Part shown: positions 15,589 to 60,711 of the stretch, one piece after another
Numbering within the stretch: position 1 is the stretch's first letter
Layout of the letters: every line of letters begins with the position of its first letter
Virus record (IMG/VR): IMGVR_UViG_3300047550_006373
Span: 1-64,000 of that record
Origin: a virus
Reading direction: 5' to 3' (one strand)
Length of the DNA stretch: 64,000 nt
Position numbers and translations under genes: made by a program
The notes under the pieces: model-generated
What the model was told of the DNA's origin: nothing
Databases searched by the model: none
Seen by the model: the letters and a program-made list of their open reading frames with translations, nothing else

Positions 15589-16236
15589 ATGAGCATTCAC
15601 CCTACAGCAATCATTGAAGACTCTGTTATTTTAGGAGAAAACGTAACAATTGGACCGTATTCTGTAATAACAGGTAAGGTCATTATTGGCAGCGGAACCA
15701 CGATATATTCTCACTGTACCATAGGAGGACTAGGAGAATATCCTTCTAAGAGAATGGATGAGATACAGGATAATGTGGGAGTAGTTATAGGAGAAAATTG
15801 TATCATAAGAGAGTCTGTTAACATCAATGCAGCAACAATAGCCAATCAAAATACTGTTATTGGTAATAACTGCTATATTATGACCAAATCACATGTAGGA
15901 CACGATGTTATACTTGAAGAAGGAGTCGTAATATGCAGCTGTGCTGTTATAGGCGGATACTCAAAGATAGGAACAAAGACTTACGTGGGTCTGAACTCTT
16001 CGATACACCAACGATCTGATGTTGGAGGCTATTGCATAATTGGAGCACAATCCTTCTTTAAAGGTGAAAGCCCTGACGGAATAACCTGGGCGGGTACACC
16101 TGCAACTCCAAAAAAGGTCAATTTTTTTAATCTAAATAAGAATCTAAAAGATGGATCTCAAAAATCGGGAATAGTAGATAAAGCTGAGCTTTATATTAAA
16201 AATTTCTCTAAATCTCAAAAGAAAGAAAAAGAATGA
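15589..16236 (+). CDS. LpxA-like left-handed beta-helix acyltransferase
   Basis: A 215-residue acyltransferase. From residue 3 on it is built of hexapeptide repeats (IHPTAIIEDSVILGENVTIG and further [LIV]-G-x4 turns) that form a left-handed beta-helix. H102 and H105 in SHVGHD match the position of the catalytic histidines of LpxA, and the order IGE-N-CIIRESVNIN also follows LpxA. The C-terminal helix region is short and lysine-rich. LpxA acylates UDP-GlcNAc, or UDP-GlcNAc3N where GnnA and GnnB make it. Here the aminotransferase and oxidoreductase lie just upstream, so N-acylation of an amino-sugar nucleotide is the likely role; acetyl or longer chain cannot be told. Confidence 0.82.
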   Translation: MSIHPTAIIEDSVILGENVTIGPYSVITGKVIIGSGTTIYSHCTIGGLGEYPSKRMDEIQDNVGVVIGENCIIRESVNINAATIANQNTVIGNNCYIMTKSHVGHDVILEEGVVICSCAVIGGYSKIGTKTYVGLNSSIHQRSDVGGYCIIGAQSFFKGESPDGITWAGTPATPKKVNFFNLNKNLKDGSQKSGIVDKAELYIKNFSKSQKKEKE

Positions 16237-17171
16237 TTTCAAGAAGTTCTATTGCTGTTATCGGACAAGGTTTCGTGGGTGGTTCCATTACCACAGTTTT
16301 TTCAGAACACGGTTTTGAAGTTTTTGTTCATGATAAAACTGGTAAAGTATCCCCTGGAGGTAAGCAACCTGAAATCGCTGGTGGTACACATGCAAGTAAT
16401 GTCAAAGAATTCGTAACAGCTTGCGAAAAAGTTGTGGACTTTTCAAAAGTATACTTCGTGTGTCTTCCAACTCCCATGTATGAAGACGGATCTGCAGACC
16501 TCAGTATAGTCGAGGGTGTGCTTGACGAGATAGCATCTGTTCCAGGTGACAGGATTGCTGTCGTGAAGTCAACTATTCCTCCCGGCTCTACTGAAGGCTG
16601 GAACAAGAAGTACGAATCTACAGGGCTGAGAGTGATCTTCAATCCAGAGTTCCTCACAGAAGCAAACGCGCTCGACGACATGAGAAACCAGAACAGGATC
16701 ATCATCGGTGGACCAAGACCTTGGATCAATTCAGTGAAGCAGATATTTCAAACTGCCTTCCCCAAGGTTCCGATTATCAAGACTTCCTCGACGACTGCAG
16801 AAATGGTCAAGTACCTCACTAACAACTTCCTCACGGTCAAAGTTGCATTCGCGAATGAGATGGCTCAGATTTGTGAGGCCCTAGACGCTTCAGGTCTCAA
16901 CGTGGACTACGACAAGGTTGTCGAATATGCCAAGTACGACCGCCGACTCGGAGACTCTCATTGGGGAGTACCAGGACCTGACGGTGCCCGAGGGTATGGA
17001 GGTCACTGCTTCCCCAAGGACATCAATGCAATGATCGATGTCGCTAAGAAGAACGGTGTAGATCCCAAAGTTCTCACCTCCTCCTGGGAGAAGAACCTTG
17101 AGGTGAGACAACCTGAACACAGAGATTGGGAGAAGATGTCAGGCAGGGCAGTGTCAAAACGCAGTACTTGA
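16233..17171 (+). CDS. UDP-glucose/UDP-GlcNAc 6-dehydrogenase-like, short form
   Basis: A 312-residue nucleotide-sugar dehydrogenase. It has the NAD-binding turn VIGQGFVGG, FVCLPTPM, KSTIPPGST, FNPEFLTEA, and the catalytic C259 in GYGGHCFPKD. This enzyme oxidises C6 of a UDP-hexose to the uronic acid, with two NAD+. Typical members have about 400 or more residues; here the chain stops soon after the central helix, so the C-terminal UDP-binding domain is missing or reduced. Base composition changes inside the gene: the first 70-90 codons are AT-rich like the upstream genes, and the rest prefers AAG, GAG, CTC and GAC. It overlaps the acyltransferase by 4 bases. Confidence 0.85.
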   Translation: MISRSSIAVIGQGFVGGSITTVFSEHGFEVFVHDKTGKVSPGGKQPEIAGGTHASNVKEFVTACEKVVDFSKVYFVCLPTPMYEDGSADLSIVEGVLDEIASVPGDRIAVVKSTIPPGSTEGWNKKYESTGLRVIFNPEFLTEANALDDMRNQNRIIIGGPRPWINSVKQIFQTAFPKVPIIKTSSTTAEMVKYLTNNFLTVKVAFANEMAQICEALDASGLNVDYDKVVEYAKYDRRLGDSHWGVPGPDGARGYGGHCFPKDINAMIDVAKKNGVDPKVLTSSWEKNLEVRQPEHRDWEKMSGRAVSKRST

Positions 17172-17197
17172 ACTATAGAAGTCTGACATGCTACTAT
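17168..17197 (+). promoter_or_regulatory. Possible promoter, extended -10, leaderless arrangement
   Basis: TTGAAC at 17168-17173, an 18-base spacer and TACTAT at 17192-17197 preceded by TGC. Transcription would start close to 17204, only a few bases before the ATG at 17207, and no Shine-Dalgarno is seen ahead of that ATG. It is the same TGC-plus-A/T-rich core as in the other gaps, but weaker. Confidence 0.35.
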
Positions 17198-17206
17198 TAA
17201 AACAAC

Positions 17207-18019
17207 ATGTCAGAAAATCAATTTCAAGTACTCCCAACAGGCAAACCTCACGTATCTTTTTCTGAGGTGAAGACCTGGAAGGATTGCTCCTATAGGCACC
17301 ACCTCACCCACGTGAAGAAGATCGATTTCTTCAAACCCTCACCTGTACTTGAGTTCGGCACAGCGGTGCACGCTTCATGCGAGAAGTACCTGCTCACTCG
17401 TGAGATGGATGTGAAGTTGTGCCACGATGCCCTCGATGAGGCATGGGCCAAACATGGTGGTCAGGAAGAATTCACAGAAAAGGCATTAAAGGTTGCCAAG
17501 ACTGAGTCTGAAGCAATTCTCTCCGAGGTACCTGCATTCCTGGACAGGGAGTTTCCCGAGTGGTCTGTTGTGGATGCGGAGCACGCCCTGTATGAATCTG
17601 TGGAGGGTCATCCCCACGCATTCAAGGGCTTCATCGACGGCGTTATCAAGTGTAAAGGTAAGCGAGGAGAAGACCTCTATTGGATCATCGACTGGAAGAC
17701 GTCTGCTAACGGCTGGAGACGAGAGAAACGTTCGGATGAGATGGTGAAGGCCCAATTGGCCCTCTATAAGAACTACTGGCACCAGAAGAATCCACAGGTT
17801 CCCTTCAAAGACATCAGATGTGCATTCGCCATCCTCAAGAAGTCGGCGAAGCCTGGGCAGCACTGTGAGCTCTTTTCCGTCTCTATGGGTGACGTCCCTA
17901 TTAAAAAGTCCTTAAAAGTAGTGAGCAACATGATTACCTCTGTTAAGAGAGGAATTTCTCTTAAAAATCGTGATTCTTGTACGTACTGTGAATACAAAGG
18001 AACAGAGTACTGCACTTAA
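17207..18019 (+). CDS. Cas4/RecB-like PD-(D/E)XK nuclease with Fe-S cysteines
   Basis: A 270-residue DNA nuclease of the RecB/Cas4 group. The active-site set is complete: H55 (GTAVHASCEKY), D144 (GFIDGVI), D162-W-K164 (IIDWKTS) and the QxxxY motif Q183-Y187. Four cysteines are placed as for a 4Fe-4S cluster: C27 near the N-terminus and C258, C261 and C269 at the very end (C-x2-C-x7-C). Such enzymes trim or resect DNA ends; phages use them in recombination, host DNA breakdown or packaging. It sits oddly inside the glycan island and shares with the dehydrogenase gene a higher-GC codon use until about base 17890. No Shine-Dalgarno is visible. Confidence 0.85.
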   Translation: MSENQFQVLPTGKPHVSFSEVKTWKDCSYRHHLTHVKKIDFFKPSPVLEFGTAVHASCEKYLLTREMDVKLCHDALDEAWAKHGGQEEFTEKALKVAKTESEAILSEVPAFLDREFPEWSVVDAEHALYESVEGHPHAFKGFIDGVIKCKGKRGEDLYWIIDWKTSANGWRREKRSDEMVKAQLALYKNYWHQKNPQVPFKDIRCAFAILKKSAKPGQHCELFSVSMGDVPIKKSLKVVSNMITSVKRGISLKNRDSCTYCEYKGTEYCT

Positions 18020-57227: not shown

Positions 57228-57755
57228 CTAGCTGAGGACATCGCCTATGACGATGTCCTCTTCTGTTTCTTGCTGCAAAAGACCCAGACCCAGCTGAGGA
57301 TCTAGAAATAACTTTGTAAAATCAAACTTAGAAACAATCTTTCCCTTGACTTGAGTTATTTTTATACCTTCAGGTGTAATCTTAGCATTCCAGGGAACAG
57401 CATCAGAAGTCGTCCAGCCTGAATACACTTCCATGAGACCCATTTTTTCCTCTGTGCCTTTGAGAGGTGTAATTTTACCAATTCTAACCTTGTCGTATTT
57501 GTCAAAGATTCCGCCTCTTCTCAGGTATTCTTGTGGATCGTCCGAATCTCCATCGTCAAAGATCCACTCAGACCCAACCCACTCTACTTCGAGAATCTCT
57601 CCGCGGTTCAGAGACACAATTTTTCTGTATTCTTCTTCAAATCCGTCCGGGTATGGAGGCTCATCTTTTAGATAATAGGCAGACTCTACAGAGTCATACA
57701 ACGTGAAAGATACAGGTGACGAACCTCGTTTTAGACTAAGCTGAACTTTCTTCAC
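57228..57755 (-). CDS. Hypothetical acidic protein, last gene of the tRNA operon
   Basis: A 175-residue, acidic, beta-rich protein with no family I can name. Visible pieces are VSFTLYDSVESAYYL, ILEVEWVGSEWIFDDGDSDD and KIVSKFDFTKLFLDPQ. It starts with GTG at 57755-57753, supported by GAGGAAAA just upstream. It follows the tilS gene at 24 bases on the same strand, so it is probably co-transcribed with the tRNAs. Its last 27 bases contain the stem-loop that ends the opposite operon. Confidence 0.65.
   Translation of the reverse strand: MKKVQLSLKRGSSPVSFTLYDSVESAYYLKDEPPYPDGFEEEYRKIVSLNRGEILEVEWVGSEWIFDDGDSDDPQEYLRRGGIFDKYDKVRIGKITPLKGTEEKMGLMEVYSGWTTSDAVPWNAKITPEGIKITQVKGKIVSKFDFTKLFLDPQLGLGLLQQETEEDIVIGDVLS
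57234..57271 (+). terminator. Rho-independent terminator at convergent gene ends
   Basis: A perfect 10-base stem, GAGGACATCG (57234-57243) with CGATGTCCTC (57251-57260), around a 7-base loop, followed on the plus strand by TTCTGTTTCTT. It closes the plus-strand fibre block. It also codes for the last residues of the minus-strand gene at 57228; on the minus strand no T-rich tail follows, so it should act mostly in the plus direction. Confidence 0.7.
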
Positions 57756-57779: not shown

Positions 57780-58400
57780 CTACAAGGAAACTCGAATCTC
57801 GCTAGCCATCAATAATTCGTATTTCTTCTTGAGGACCTTTCCAATACCAGGATTCACCTTCAGTGCCTCGGGAACGATCGCCATTCGAATGAGGTTGCGC
57901 ATGTACTTAGGATCGCTGTTGGACTCGTCCTCGATCCACGTGAGATTCCTCCTCGAAGCCCAGGATCGGATCTCCTCCTTCGGTGTGACCAAGAACGGAC
58001 GGATCACATTTCCACGAGAATAAGGAATCAACTTGGATTCTCCGTGAAGTGAGGTGAAGATCCACGTCTCGATCGCGTCACCCAGGTGGTGACCCGTCAC
58101 CACAGGACCTCCCAGGGAGTCCAGGAATGTGTACCGTTCATTCCTCCAAAATTCCTCGGGGGAAACGTCCTTGGATTTCTTGGAATTAATCCGTCCAATC
58201 CTGAGGGGTACGTGGCGTTCCTCCGCGAATTTTCGAACAAACTCCTCGGCACGTTCGGAGTTGATCGTTCCGTGGTGGAAGAACGCGAGGGTCACGTCAC
58301 GTTTTCCGTTCAAAAGAAAGTCGGAGATCACCACGGAATCGATGCCACCTGAGAAGGCGATTGTACACTTCCGCGGAAGATCCCCGATAAACTTCAGCAT
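57780..58400 (-). CDS. tilS: TilS-like tRNA(Ile) lysidine synthetase, minimal form
   Basis: A 206-residue PP-loop ATPase. TilS joins lysine to C34 of tRNA-Ile with CAU anticodon, which turns a Met-reading tRNA into one for AUA. The ATP loop S17-G-G-I-D21-S22, then T102-G-H-H-L-G-D108 with E111-T, RPFLVTPKEEI, and D158-E-S-N161 with RN at 168-169 and R172 are the TilS order. E. coli TilS has about 430 residues; here only the catalytic domain is present, and the C-terminal tRNA-binding domains are lacking. Codon use is more GC-rich than in the virion genes. A tRNA with CAU anticodon lies 20 bases upstream on the same strand. Confidence 0.88.
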   Translation of the reverse strand: MLKFIGDLPRKCTIAFSGGIDSVVISDFLLNGKRDVTLAFFHHGTINSERAEEFVRKFAEERHVPLRIGRINSKKSKDVSPEEFWRNERYTFLDSLGGPVVTGHHLGDAIETWIFTSLHGESKLIPYSRGNVIRPFLVTPKEEIRSWASRRNLTWIEDESNSDPKYMRNLIRMAIVPEALKVNPGIGKVLKKKYELLMASEIRVSL

Positions 58401-58420
58401 GACTTCCTCTTAGAAAATAG

Positions 58421-58494
58421 TGGAACCACTCGGACTTGAACCGAGAGCCGGCTGATTATGAGTCAGATGCTCTAACCTATTGAGCTATGGTTCC
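58421..58494 (-). tRNA. tRNA with CAU anticodon: probably tRNA-Ile2, else elongator Met
   Basis: On the minus strand a 74-base cloverleaf is seen: acceptor GGAACCA/TGGTTCC (7 pairs), D-stem GCTC/GAGC with loop AATAGGTTA, anticodon stem TCTGA/TCAGC around the loop CTCATAA, 5-base variable loop, and T-stem CTCGG/CCGAG with loop TTCAAGT. The anticodon is CAT. The first pair of the anticodon stem is a U-C mismatch. A G1-C72 pair and no GGG/CCC in the anticodon stem rule out initiator tRNA. The CCA end is not coded. The adjacent tilS gene makes the Ile2 (AUA) reading the more likely one; sequence alone does not decide between Ile2 and Met. Confidence 0.85.
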
Positions 58495-58506
58495 GTTGAA
58501 TATCAG

Positions 58507-58588
58507 TACCGCCCGTGGGAGTTGAACCCACATGCCTTTCGGCGCCGGGATTTGAATCCGGAGTGTATGCCAGTTCCACCAGAGCGGC
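58507..58588 (-). tRNA. tRNA-Leu(CAA)
   Basis: An 82-base minus-strand class II tRNA. Acceptor GCCGCTC pairs with GGGCGGT (two G-U wobbles), D-stem GTG/CAC, anticodon loop TTCAAAT with anticodon CAA, a long variable arm with the hairpin GCC-GAAA-GGC, and T-stem GTGGG/CCCAC with loop TTCAACT. The innermost pair of the anticodon stem CCGGA/CCCGG is an A-C mismatch. CCA is not coded. It would read UUG, which the AT-rich genes of this phage use often. Confidence 0.83.
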
Positions 58589-58624: not shown

Positions 58625-59011
58625 TTACAATAACTTTAAGTTACGAGTTATCTCATCGATCTTTCGTGAATCGTCGGGACCAATAGCGACGCAAAGAGTC
58701 TCTGTGCCGCCCTCTTCGTCAAACATTTTTCCTTCCACGGGATAACACTGAAGACCAGCAAGTTCCGCCTTAAAAGTTAAACTTTTAAGAGTTGTCTCCG
58801 ATCCTACGCCCAAAACTACGCGAATAGAGCCGCTGTTGATCCAGTCTGTCTCTTCGGGAGTGAGCCTGACTGAAAGAGTGTCGCCCCGCTCAGATTCGTC
58901 ATTCACTAGAAAAAATTCTGTAGAAGCCTTTGCAACCAGAGAGGCAACCTGGGATTTTTTCATCTTCAGATCTTGACGTACAAGGATAACTTGTTTCAGA
59001 TCGCTGGGCAT
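58625..59011 (-). CDS. Pth2-like peptidyl-tRNA hydrolase
   Basis: A 128-residue protein of the archaeal/eukaryotic Pth2 type, which frees tRNAs from stalled peptidyl-tRNA. It has LKQVILVRQDLKMKKSQVAS at the N-terminus and, at the end, GTETLCVAIGPDDSRKIDEI with NLKLL, the most telling block (family form: the T-V-x-A-I-G-P start and the H-L-K-L-L end). The family's glycine-lysine after the R-x-D-L-x-M run is changed to Lys-Ser and the His of the A-Q-x-x-H-A helix to Lys, so activity is uncertain. AGGAGGT at 59017-59023 is an ideal Shine-Dalgarno. It is the first gene of the tRNA/tilS operon. Confidence 0.75.
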   Translation of the reverse strand: MPSDLKQVILVRQDLKMKKSQVASLVAKASTEFFLVNDESERGDTLSVRLTPEETDWINSGSIRVVLGVGSETTLKSLTFKAELAGLQCYPVEGKMFDEEGGTETLCVAIGPDDSRKIDEITRNLKLL

Positions 59012-59146: not shown

Positions 59147-60217
59147 ATGAAAGATAATAAGAAGTTTGCATTAGTTCTTTCAGGGGGAGGCGTAAAAGGA
59201 GCCTGGGAGGCTGGATTCCTAAAGTACATAGCAGAGAGATGGGGGCATAAATTTGAAACAGTTTCGGGAGCTTCTATTGGGGCTCTCAATGGTCTAGTTT
59301 ATTGTGCTGCAGCTCACGATGAAAAGAAGCTGCCTGATGCAATTGTGGATCCGTGGAACAAAATAAGCTTTGGACAGGTCGCAAAGGTTCCGTGGAGTGA
59401 TATATTCCATCTAAGATTCTATTCCGTACTCGATAACTCTCCGCTGCTAGAATTTGTGAATAAAAATCTTAATCTGGAACAATATAGAAAAAACATAGAC
59501 ACAGGAATCGTTACTGCAAACGTTCTTGCGACTACAGAACTTACTTCCAAACGTCTTCACATGTGGGTAGACTCTAAGGACAATAAAACATACGATTCTC
59601 CGGCGTGGATCACAAAGAAGCAGGAGCTGAATGGAACACACGCTGTCGCTTCAGGCGCTGTACCAATTGCCTTTAGATCACAACAACTGGGCGACGGCGG
59701 ATGGCACGTGGACGGTGGTCTTTGTGAGAACACACCTATAGCACCCATCCTGATGTCTTTCTATGATGATCGTACGGACAATCCTGACACGACTAACGAT
59801 CCAAAGGTAAAGATACTAGTATTGACACTTCCCGAACCAGACGTCCAGCAGGAGTGGACAAGAGAACCTACGATTCTTACTCAAACATCACGCATGTTTG
59901 AAGCTCTCACTGTCAATCAAATCATGCAAGATGTTGCGAAGGCAAAGGCAATCAACGACTTCCTCGACACCCTTGGTACAGAATCTTACGGAAAGTACAG
60001 AAAACTAGACCTTCTTGTGGTAAGGCCCTCGACTTCTCTAGATGCTCTAGCTGGTAGTGTACAGAAAGAAATTGCGTGGGGACTGTTCCCAACTAACTGG
60101 ATATCTTCTCTCTCTTTTCTATTGATATTTCAACCTTATGTACAGGTCTTACTTAAGGCGGGATACGCCGAGGCCGAGAAGATGCACGATCAACTGGAGG
60201 AGTTCTTCAACTCCTGA
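59147..60217 (+). CDS. Patatin-like phospholipase
   Basis: A 356-residue lipid acyl hydrolase. The oxyanion loop S12-G-G-G-V-K-G18, the nucleophile S43 in GASIG (41-45) and the partner D189 in D-G-G (189-191) are all present, so it should be active. Members cleave acyl chains from phospholipids (phospholipase A1/A2). No signal peptide or membrane helix is visible, so it stays in the cytoplasm unless carried by the virion. It is divergent from the tRNA operon and converges with the NADAR gene, which it overlaps by 28 bases. Likely uses are lysis help, membrane remodelling during infection, or a weapon against rivals; sequence does not choose. GGAGAT precedes the ATG. Confidence 0.88.
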   Translation: MKDNKKFALVLSGGGVKGAWEAGFLKYIAERWGHKFETVSGASIGALNGLVYCAAAHDEKKLPDAIVDPWNKISFGQVAKVPWSDIFHLRFYSVLDNSPLLEFVNKNLNLEQYRKNIDTGIVTANVLATTELTSKRLHMWVDSKDNKTYDSPAWITKKQELNGTHAVASGAVPIAFRSQQLGDGGWHVDGGLCENTPIAPILMSFYDDRTDNPDTTNDPKVKILVLTLPEPDVQQEWTREPTILTQTSRMFEALTVNQIMQDVAKAKAINDFLDTLGTESYGKYRKLDLLVVRPSTSLDALAGSVQKEIAWGLFPTNWISSLSFLLIFQPYVQVLLKAGYAEAEKMHDQLEEFFNS

Positions 60218-60711
60218 CGAACCTCCATCAGGATCTTACCGAGGAGGTTGGCGCCGGCGCCCCTGCATACGCCCCACACACGATCATTCCAGCTGTTGTT
60301 ATGCACCAATTCGGCATCACCTGTCTTCAAGAGTAGGTCGGCCAGGAACGGTGATTCAAACTTCTTTCGGATGAAGTCCCGCATCAACCCCTCCTTCACC
60401 GCATCCCAATCAGGTCGCATCTCAACGCCTCTCCCAAGCTTTTTGGCCATGGCAGGATCCTTGGCCTTTCGAATCATCTCTCGAGATTCCTCATTGAGGG
60501 TCTTGTGGGCCTGGTATGCATGCTCGACAGTGGGGTAACTTTTCCCGTCTATCCATATCGTTGACGGATGGAAATTGGACAGAAAAGCGTATCCTGATGC
60601 TAATGTGAACGAATCGATTATTTTTCTATCGGTCATCTGGAGGCCCAGGTGGGCATCGAATCCCACTCCTCCCGGAGGCGTTCCCTCAAACTGCTGGGCC
60701 TGGTGTGTCAC
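60190..60711 (-). CDS. NADAR/YbiA-like N-glycosidase
   Basis: A 173-residue protein with the NADAR fold. The family markers are S45-N-F47, Y59-P-T-V-E63-H-A-Y-Q-A, R-P-D-W (99-102), K-x-G-L-M and N142-D143 with W146-G147. YbiA cleaves N-glycosidic bonds in riboflavin intermediates; other NADAR proteins remove ADP-ribose from guanine and serve as antitoxin in DarT1-type systems. Start is the GTG at 60711, overlapping the TGA of the lipoprotein gene (GTGA); residues 1-25 precede the normal domain start, and an in-frame ATG at codon 26 is an alternative. Codon use is GC-richer than in the virion genes. Confidence 0.87.
   Translation of the reverse strand: MTHQAQQFEGTPPGGVGFDAHLGLQMTDRKIIDSFTLASGYAFLSNFHPSTIWIDGKSYPTVEHAYQAHKTLNEESREMIRKAKDPAMAKKLGRGVEMRPDWDAVKEGLMRDFIRKKFESPFLADLLLKTGDAELVHNNSWNDRVWGVCRGAGANLLGKILMEVRQELKNSSS
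60198..60215. other. Short inverted repeat at convergent 3' ends
   Basis: AGGAGTT (60198-60204), loop CTTC, AACTCCT (60209-60215), in the 28 bases shared by the patatin and NADAR genes. No T-run follows on either strand, so a terminator is only possible. Confidence 0.3.

What the first reader, a model, noticed from the sequence alone, without database searches (positions are those of the whole stretch)
57780..58588. Phage-coded AUA-decoding module: tRNA(CAU) next to tilS
A tRNA with CAU anticodon lies 20 bases from a gene with all TilS catalytic motifs, on the same strand. TilS acts only on tRNA-Ile2(CAU), so the pair looks like a self-contained supply of AUA-reading tRNA. The AT-rich genes use ATA often (for instance isoleucines 4 and 8 of the gene at 1908). 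The TilS is minimal, without tRNA-binding C-terminal domains, so it may be tuned to this one tRNA.
Basis: partly seen in the sequence, partly recalled or inferred. Interest (0 to 1): 0.85.

Follow-up and report, generated by a model that had tools for sequence, protein, structure and literature searches.

The report
Phage operon for reading AUA codons
A large phage from an environmental sequence collection carries, side by side, a transfer RNA of the kind that reads the isoleucine codon AUA and a stripped-down version of the bacterial enzyme that such a tRNA needs before it can work, which probably lets the phage translate its AUA-rich genes without relying on the host's scarce supply.

Summary
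tRNA(CAU) (58420-58494, minus strand) ends 19 nt upstream of a 206-aa TilS gene (57780-58400). The TilS passes NCBI's TilS equivalog-domain cut-off, and its predicted structure best matches Aquifex TilS. The tRNA classes as tRNA-Ile2, not Met or fMet. AUA is the commonest Ile codon (41%) and aligns to Ile/Val in relatives, so it is read as Ile. The unit is larger than reported: PTH2 - tRNA-Leu(CAA) - tRNA-Ile2 - tilS - ORF175, conserved across lineages down to 58% TilS identity. In ten lineages tRNA(CAU) lies directly upstream of tilS, or is separated from it only by an endonuclease-like insert. 'Tuned to this one tRNA' is not supported: nearly the same TilS (about 90% identical) sits beside three different tRNA bodies. 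The TilS has only the N-terminal catalytic domain, as in every phage relative (195-214 aa; bacterial ones checked 270-470), and phage TilS form one clade: a third architecture beside published types I and II. Phage tilS genes nearly lack AUA (19 seen, 118 expected); bacterial tilS genes do not (432 vs 405). Phage TilS (2019) and phage tRNA-Ile2 were known separately; the operon and NTD-only class look new. No activity has been shown.

The parts
57780..58400 (-). tilS: NTD-only tRNA(Ile)-lysidine synthetase, 206 aa
   Evidence: TIGR02432 111.5 bits vs cut-off 93.6; Pfam ATP_bind_3 5.6e-32; AlphaFold pLDDT 90.8; best PDB fold matches Aquifex TilS 2e21/1wy5, E 1e-14, TM 0.81
58420..58494 (-). tRNA(CAU), class I, tRNA-Ile2 type; CCA not encoded
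   Evidence: ARAGORN, RF00005 70.6 bits; Ile2 63.7 vs eMet 38.4 vs fMet -22.9, leave-one-out 45/45; same result without the acceptor stem
58506..58588 (-). tRNA-Leu(CAA), class II, reads UUG; 11 nt upstream of tRNA(CAU)
   Evidence: ARAGORN, RF00005 39.9 bits; conserved in L024, L025/L026/L005, L034/L035, L036
58601..58630 (-). promoter-like element TTGTAA-N18-TAnnnT upstream of the tRNA pair (overlaps the PTH2 stop)
   Evidence: same 18-nt spacing read off in all 8 aligned lineages; but not flagged by the consensus scan, and TTGTAA includes the PTH2 stop codon, so weak
58625..59011 (-). PTH2-type peptidyl-tRNA hydrolase, 128 aa
   Evidence: Pfam PTH2 8.1e-19; TIGR00283 69.4 bits, below its cut-off of 82; same place in L024, L025/L026/L005, L034/L035, L036
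57228..57755 (-). ORF175, unknown function, directly downstream of tilS
   Evidence: no Pfam or PHROG match; conserved downstream of tilS in L024, L025/L026/L005, L034/L035, L036, L028

Best explanation
A phage operon that supplies AUA-decoding capacity. tRNA-Leu(CAA), tRNA-Ile2(CAU) and tilS lie on one strand and are probably transcribed together. The phage TilS, an N-terminal-domain-only enzyme, adds lysine to C34 of the tRNA(CAU), turning it from a Met-like AUG reader into an Ile-charged AUA reader (charging by host IleRS). PTH2 next door would recycle peptidyl-tRNAs that drop off. The tRNA-Leu(CAA) adds UUG reading. TilS probably recognises mainly the anticodon arm and so can also serve the host's tRNA-Ile2. 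Shown by sequence: gene identities, tRNA class, co-localisation across lineages, AUA read as Ile, AUA avoidance in phage tilS. Inferred: co-transcription, lysidine formation, charging with Ile, benefit to the phage.
For: TilS equivalog-domain match and fold. Window tRNA classes as Ile2, nearest references are Ile2-type tRNAs. tRNA(CAU) 15-90 nt upstream of tilS on the same strand in window, L024, L025/L026/L005, L007, L008, L030, L036; 830-1030 nt upstream with only an endonuclease-like gene between in L034, L032, L038. Whole PTH2-Leu-Ile2-TilS-ORF175 block conserved down to L036 (PTH2 44%, ORF175 36%). AUA 27.5/1000 codons, 41% of Ile; AUA columns align to I/V as AUU/AUC do. Phage tilS O/E for AUA 0.16, the most depleted codon tested, vs 1.07 in 56 bacterial tilS. 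Precedents: a phage-coded tRNA(CAU) in a T4-like vibriophage carries lysidine at C34 (review PMC13191261); L. curvatus prophages carry tRNA-Ile2(CAU) with raised AUA use (PMC10688831).
Against: No enzymology. TilS type I needs its C-terminal domains for efficient reaction (PMC12514573, citing work on CTD2), and this protein lacks them. In several close relatives the CAU tRNA has a degenerate or class II (leucine-like) body that my classifier cannot call Ile2, although AUA still means Ile there. Many phages of the family have TilS without a CAU tRNA nearby. AUA avoidance is shared by other core genes (sliding-clamp-like, capsid-like, recombinase-like, named by eye), so it marks AUA as a slow codon rather than proving a TilS-specific circuit. 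The host is unknown, so host AUA use and host Ile2 supply could not be compared.
Confidence: 0.8

Rival explanations
1. The tRNA(CAU) is an elongator Met tRNA and not a TilS substrate; the phage TilS works on the host's tRNA-Ile2, and the adjacency only reflects clustering of translation genes.
For: ARAGORN names it Met, as it does all CAU tRNAs; phage G017 has TilS and no tRNA, G018/G019 have TilS with an eMet-like CAU tRNA far away; CAU-tRNA bodies in L024 and L008 score eMet over Ile2.
Against: Window tRNA scores 25 bits better as Ile2 than as eMet, and 20 bits better without the acceptor stem; same-strand adjacency recurs in ten lineages and no other tRNA sits at that place.
Confidence: 0.12
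2. Replacement rather than extra supply: the operon restores Ile2 (and Leu-CAA) tRNAs that are lost when host tRNAs are degraded or cut in the anticodon loop during infection, and variable bodies help phage tRNAs escape host nucleases. This is compatible with the same chemistry as the best explanation and differs in what creates the need.
For: CAU-tRNA bodies change quickly while the CUCAUAA loop, A73 and (mostly) the acceptor and T stems stay; PTH2 in the operon fits tRNA rescue; vibriophage work reports host DNA and RNA decay during infection (PMC13191261).
Against: The anticodon loop, the usual target of anticodon nucleases, is exactly what is conserved; no anti-defence gene was found next to it; AUA-rich coding explains the pair without it.
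Confidence: 0.2
3. The protein is a TilS-derived PP-loop enzyme with another job (for example another base or another tRNA).
For: NTD only; PP-loop enzymes such as TtuA and LarE share the fold; TilS also occurs in a phage without tRNAs.
Against: Passes the TilS equivalog-domain cut-off while other PP-loop models score far below theirs; TilS structures rank first; tRNA(CAU) is its recurrent neighbour.
Confidence: 0.04
4. AUA is reassigned in these phages (to Leu or Met), and the Leu-bodied CAU tRNAs of relatives deliver it.
For: Class II, leucine-like CAU tRNAs in L032/L033 and L009/L038, and class II in L007, L030.
Against: AUA positions align to Ile and Val, with Leu no commoner than for AUU in the same loci.
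Confidence: 0.02

Closest known systems
TilS type I (E. coli, Geobacillus 3a2k) and type II (Aquifex 1wy5/2e21)
   Same: Same N-terminal lysidine-synthetase domain, motifs and fold
   Different: Type I has CTD1 and CTD2, type II lacks CTD2 (PMC12514573; that Aquifex is type II is from my own knowledge); the phage protein ends right after the N-terminal domain and lacks both (195-214 aa in all phage relatives vs 270-470 aa in bacterial TilS checked)
TilS of Pseudomonas jumbo phages MIJ3 / PA5oct (PMC6892783, 2019)
   Same: 44.6% identical, same NTD-only length; the paper calls it the first TilS reported in a phage and leaves its function open
   Different: There the CAU tRNAs lie about 7-10 kb away in a tRNA array, annotated as Met; no tRNA-tilS unit was described in the passages read
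Phage-coded tRNA-Ile2(CAU), e.g. L. curvatus prophages (PMC10688831) and a T4-like vibriophage (PMC13191261)
   Same: Phage tRNA(CAU) that reads AUA after lysidine is added
   Different: For L. curvatus the paper points to the strains' own tilS; the review passage on the vibriophage does not say which enzyme adds the lysidine; here the phage carries tilS next to the tRNA

Membership tests
TilS, tRNA(Ile)-lysidine synthetase | N-terminal PP-loop lysidine-synthetase domain above curated cut-off | tested here: met
   TIGR02432 111.5 vs 93.6 bits
TilS, tRNA(Ile)-lysidine synthetase | PP-loop SGGxDS, HHx(x)DxxET and DxSNxxxxxRN motifs | tested here: met
   Key residues invariant or nearly so in 15 aligned phage TilS; first D of HHxDD is G in the window clade
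TilS, tRNA(Ile)-lysidine synthetase | Fold of solved TilS N-terminal domains | tested here: met
   Model pLDDT 90.8; 2e21/1wy5/1ni5 top hits, TM 0.81
TilS, tRNA(Ile)-lysidine synthetase | C-terminal tRNA-binding domain(s), CTD1 with or without CTD2 (types II and I) | tested here: not met
   Protein ends after the NTD in all phage relatives. So it is not a type I or II TilS, but a TilS-domain enzyme of a third architecture
TilS, tRNA(Ile)-lysidine synthetase | Makes lysidine at C34 of tRNA-Ile2 | not testable with these tools
   needs biochemistry
tRNA-Ile2(CAU) | CAU anticodon in CUCAUAA loop, A73, Ile2-like rather than Met/fMet body | tested here: met
   reference classes were labelled by me from acceptor-stem features, then tested with the acceptor left out (43/45 leave-one-out)
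tRNA-Ile2(CAU) | C4-G69 and C29-G41 pairs known from E. coli Ile2 (recalled from the literature) | tested here: not met
   Window has A4-U69, C5-G68 and U29-A41 (sequence); Bacteroidota Ile2-type references also have U29-A41, so this is not decisive
PTH2 peptidyl-tRNA hydrolase | Pfam PTH2 above cut-off | tested here: met
   68.4 vs 23 bits; the stricter TIGR00283 equivalog cut-off is not reached, 69.4 vs 82

The most novel reading that the evidence does not exclude
Phages have evolved a third, NTD-only type of TilS that reads only the anticodon arm, so it can lysidinylate CAU tRNAs on almost any body, including class II leucine-like ones, letting phages build AUA-reading tRNAs from different scaffolds and swap them freely beside the same enzyme.
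Probability: 0.4. Interest if true: 0.78.

Novelty: new variant of a known kind. Interest (0 to 1): 0.62.

Why it matters
Phages are known to carry tRNAs, but a tRNA-Ile2 transcript is useless for AUA, and could misread AUG, until C34 is lysidinylated. A phage that brings the modifying enzyme with the tRNA solves this in one unit and makes a clear, testable prediction. The NTD-only phage TilS (hundreds of matching stretches in viral contigs) asks how TilS tells Ile2 from Met without the domains that are thought to read the tRNA body, and is a natural minimal enzyme for studying codon decoding.

Tried and rejected
AUA reassignment to Leu or Met: rejected by codon alignments. 'AUA avoidance is unique to tilS': weakened; other core-looking genes avoid AUA too, and within two jumbo phages tilS ranks only 51/311 and 25/245 by binomial P because it has just 10 Ile codons. 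'TilS tuned to its tRNA': rejected. tRNAs missed by ARAGORN near tilS in loci without one: none found by loop-pattern search, which turned up one unlisted tRNA-like stretch 7 kb from tilS in L021, or by Rfam in L006, L028, L029, L031. Sigma-70 consensus scan gave no promoter above chance near the operon; the conserved TTGTAA-N18-TAnnnT came from comparing relatives and may partly reflect the PTH2 stop codon. Two reference-tRNA pattern searches used a wrong spacing and gave nothing useful; repeated correctly.

Full report
What is there. The window is nearly all of a 64,948-base virus record from IMG/VR. It is a tailed-phage fragment (baseplate-wedge and tail-fibre matches) with a mostly 35-40% GC half rich in glycosyltransferase and sugar-metabolism genes and a 45-50% GC half. 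Near the right end, on the minus strand, lie in order of transcription a PTH2-type peptidyl-tRNA hydrolase (58625-59011), tRNA-Leu(CAA) (58506-58588), tRNA(CAU) (58420-58494), a 206-aa TilS (57780-58400) and ORF175 (57228-57755). These are the only two tRNAs in the record.

The enzyme. The protein passes the curated TilS equivalog-domain cut-off. Its closest solved relatives by sequence are Aquifex, E. coli and Geobacillus TilS, and an AlphaFold model (pLDDT 90.8) matches Aquifex TilS best (TM 0.81). It stops right after the N-terminal domain. All the roughly 100 phage loci examined (some overlapping) encode 195-214 aa; bacterial TilS in related genomes run 270-470 aa from match to stop (one, on L136, ended after 97 aa and was set aside). 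In a tree of 37 phage-type and 28 bacterial N-terminal domains, the phage proteins form one clade (support 0.995). Published TilS are type I (two C-terminal domains) or type II (one) (PMC12514573). An NTD-only group is, as far as I could find, undescribed as such, though phage TilS itself was reported for MIJ3 in 2019 with unknown function (PMC6892783).

The tRNA. ARAGORN calls every CAU tRNA 'Met'. I collected 45 CAU tRNAs from bacterial genomes, labelled them fMet, eMet or Ile2 from acceptor-stem and D-stem features, and built position profiles (leave-one-out 45/45). The window tRNA scores Ile2 63.7, eMet 38.4, fMet -22.9. Without the acceptor stem, so without most of the features used for labelling, it is Ile2 55.7, eMet 35.5; on the anticodon arm alone 24.0 vs 8.1. 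Its nearest references (80% identical) are Ile2-type tRNAs from Bacteroidota genomes. The labels are mine, so this is strong but not independent proof.

AUA. AUA is 539 of 1323 Ile codons, about what A-ending usage in other codon boxes predicts, so AUA is simply not avoided. In homologous proteins from other loci, AUA columns hold Ile and Val as AUU/AUC columns do, both in the window and in relatives with odd tRNAs, so AUA means Ile. Phage tilS genes themselves avoid AUA: 19 seen, 118 expected over 32 loci, O/E 0.16, the lowest of all codons tested (19 vs 107 over 30 loci). The window's own tilS has 0 of 17 (P about 1e-4). Fifty-six bacterial tilS genes show 432 vs 405. Other core-looking phage genes avoid AUA too, so I read this as AUA being a slow codon for the phage, with tilS at the extreme.

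Neighbourhood. tRNA(CAU) lies 15-90 nt upstream of tilS, same strand, in window, L024, L025/L026/L005, L007, L008, L030 and L036. In L034/L035, L032/L033 and L009/L038 it lies 830-1030 nt upstream, and the gap holds an antisense gene that looks like a homing endonuclease (NUMOD3-like motif below cut-off in one of the three, shared RGKV...YYPDF...VEVKGYE-like core). The full five-part block occurs in window, L024, L025/L026/L005, L034/L035 and the more distant L036. In the 53-58% clade of large phages no CAU tRNA lies near tilS. G018 and G019 have tRNA arrays in which ARAGORN finds only an eMet-like CAU tRNA, and G017 (263.7 kb) has no tRNA detectable by Rfam. There TilS presumably acts on host tRNA-Ile2.

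Body swapping. Among close relatives the CAU tRNA keeps the CUCAUAA loop and A73, and mostly the acceptor and T stems, but changes body: ordinary class I (window, L034), other class I forms (L024, L025, L008, L036), class II with long variable arm (L007, L030) and class II leucine-like (L032, L038). TilS about 90% identical sits beside three different bodies, and near-identical tRNAs sit beside TilS 62% identical. So tRNA and enzyme recombine independently, perhaps helped by the endonuclease, and the enzyme is not tuned to one body.

Mechanism. Most likely the pair is made together, TilS lysidinylates C34, host IleRS charges the tRNA with Ile, and AUA translation in the phage's genes is relieved, with PTH2 recycling dropped peptidyl-tRNA. 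Precedents exist for phage tRNA-Ile2 and for lysidine on a phage tRNA (PMC10688831; PMC13191261). Activity, co-transcription and benefit are inferred. The literature library holds only open-licence papers, so an earlier description elsewhere cannot be excluded.

Noticed in passing
L031:6973-7348 (+): Phage-coded tmRNA (RF00023, 76 bits) a few kilobases downstream of tilS in a related phage contig.
   Followed up: no
L034, L032, L038: between tRNA(CAU) and tilS: Antisense, endonuclease-like genes (NUMOD3-like motif in one, shared RGKV...PDF...VEVKG core) sit exactly between tRNA and tilS in three lineages.
   Followed up: partly
L032, L033, L009/L038, L007, L030 CAU tRNAs: tRNAs with CAU anticodon on class II bodies (long variable arm; leucine-like D arm in L032/L038).
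   Followed up: partly
L277, L279 (G021, G028): tRNA-Leu(CAA) of class I shape, 76 nt, without the long variable arm usual for leucine tRNAs.
   Followed up: no
G017/L073, 263.7 kb: Large phage record with TilS but no tRNA detectable by Rfam; it also carries genes starting like a phosphate-binding PstS and an outer-membrane porin (named from sequence by eye).
   Followed up: partly
window 58625-59011: PTH2-type (archaeal/eukaryotic-like) peptidyl-tRNA hydrolase in a phage; related genes occur in XacN1, Myrna and other phages.
   Followed up: partly
window 59147-60711: Patatin-like phospholipase and NADAR-domain genes next to the operon, conserved in close relatives.
   Followed up: no
window 16233-18019: UDP-glucose/GDP-mannose dehydrogenase and a PD-(D/E)XK nuclease in a higher-GC island with few or no AUA codons.
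   Followed up: no
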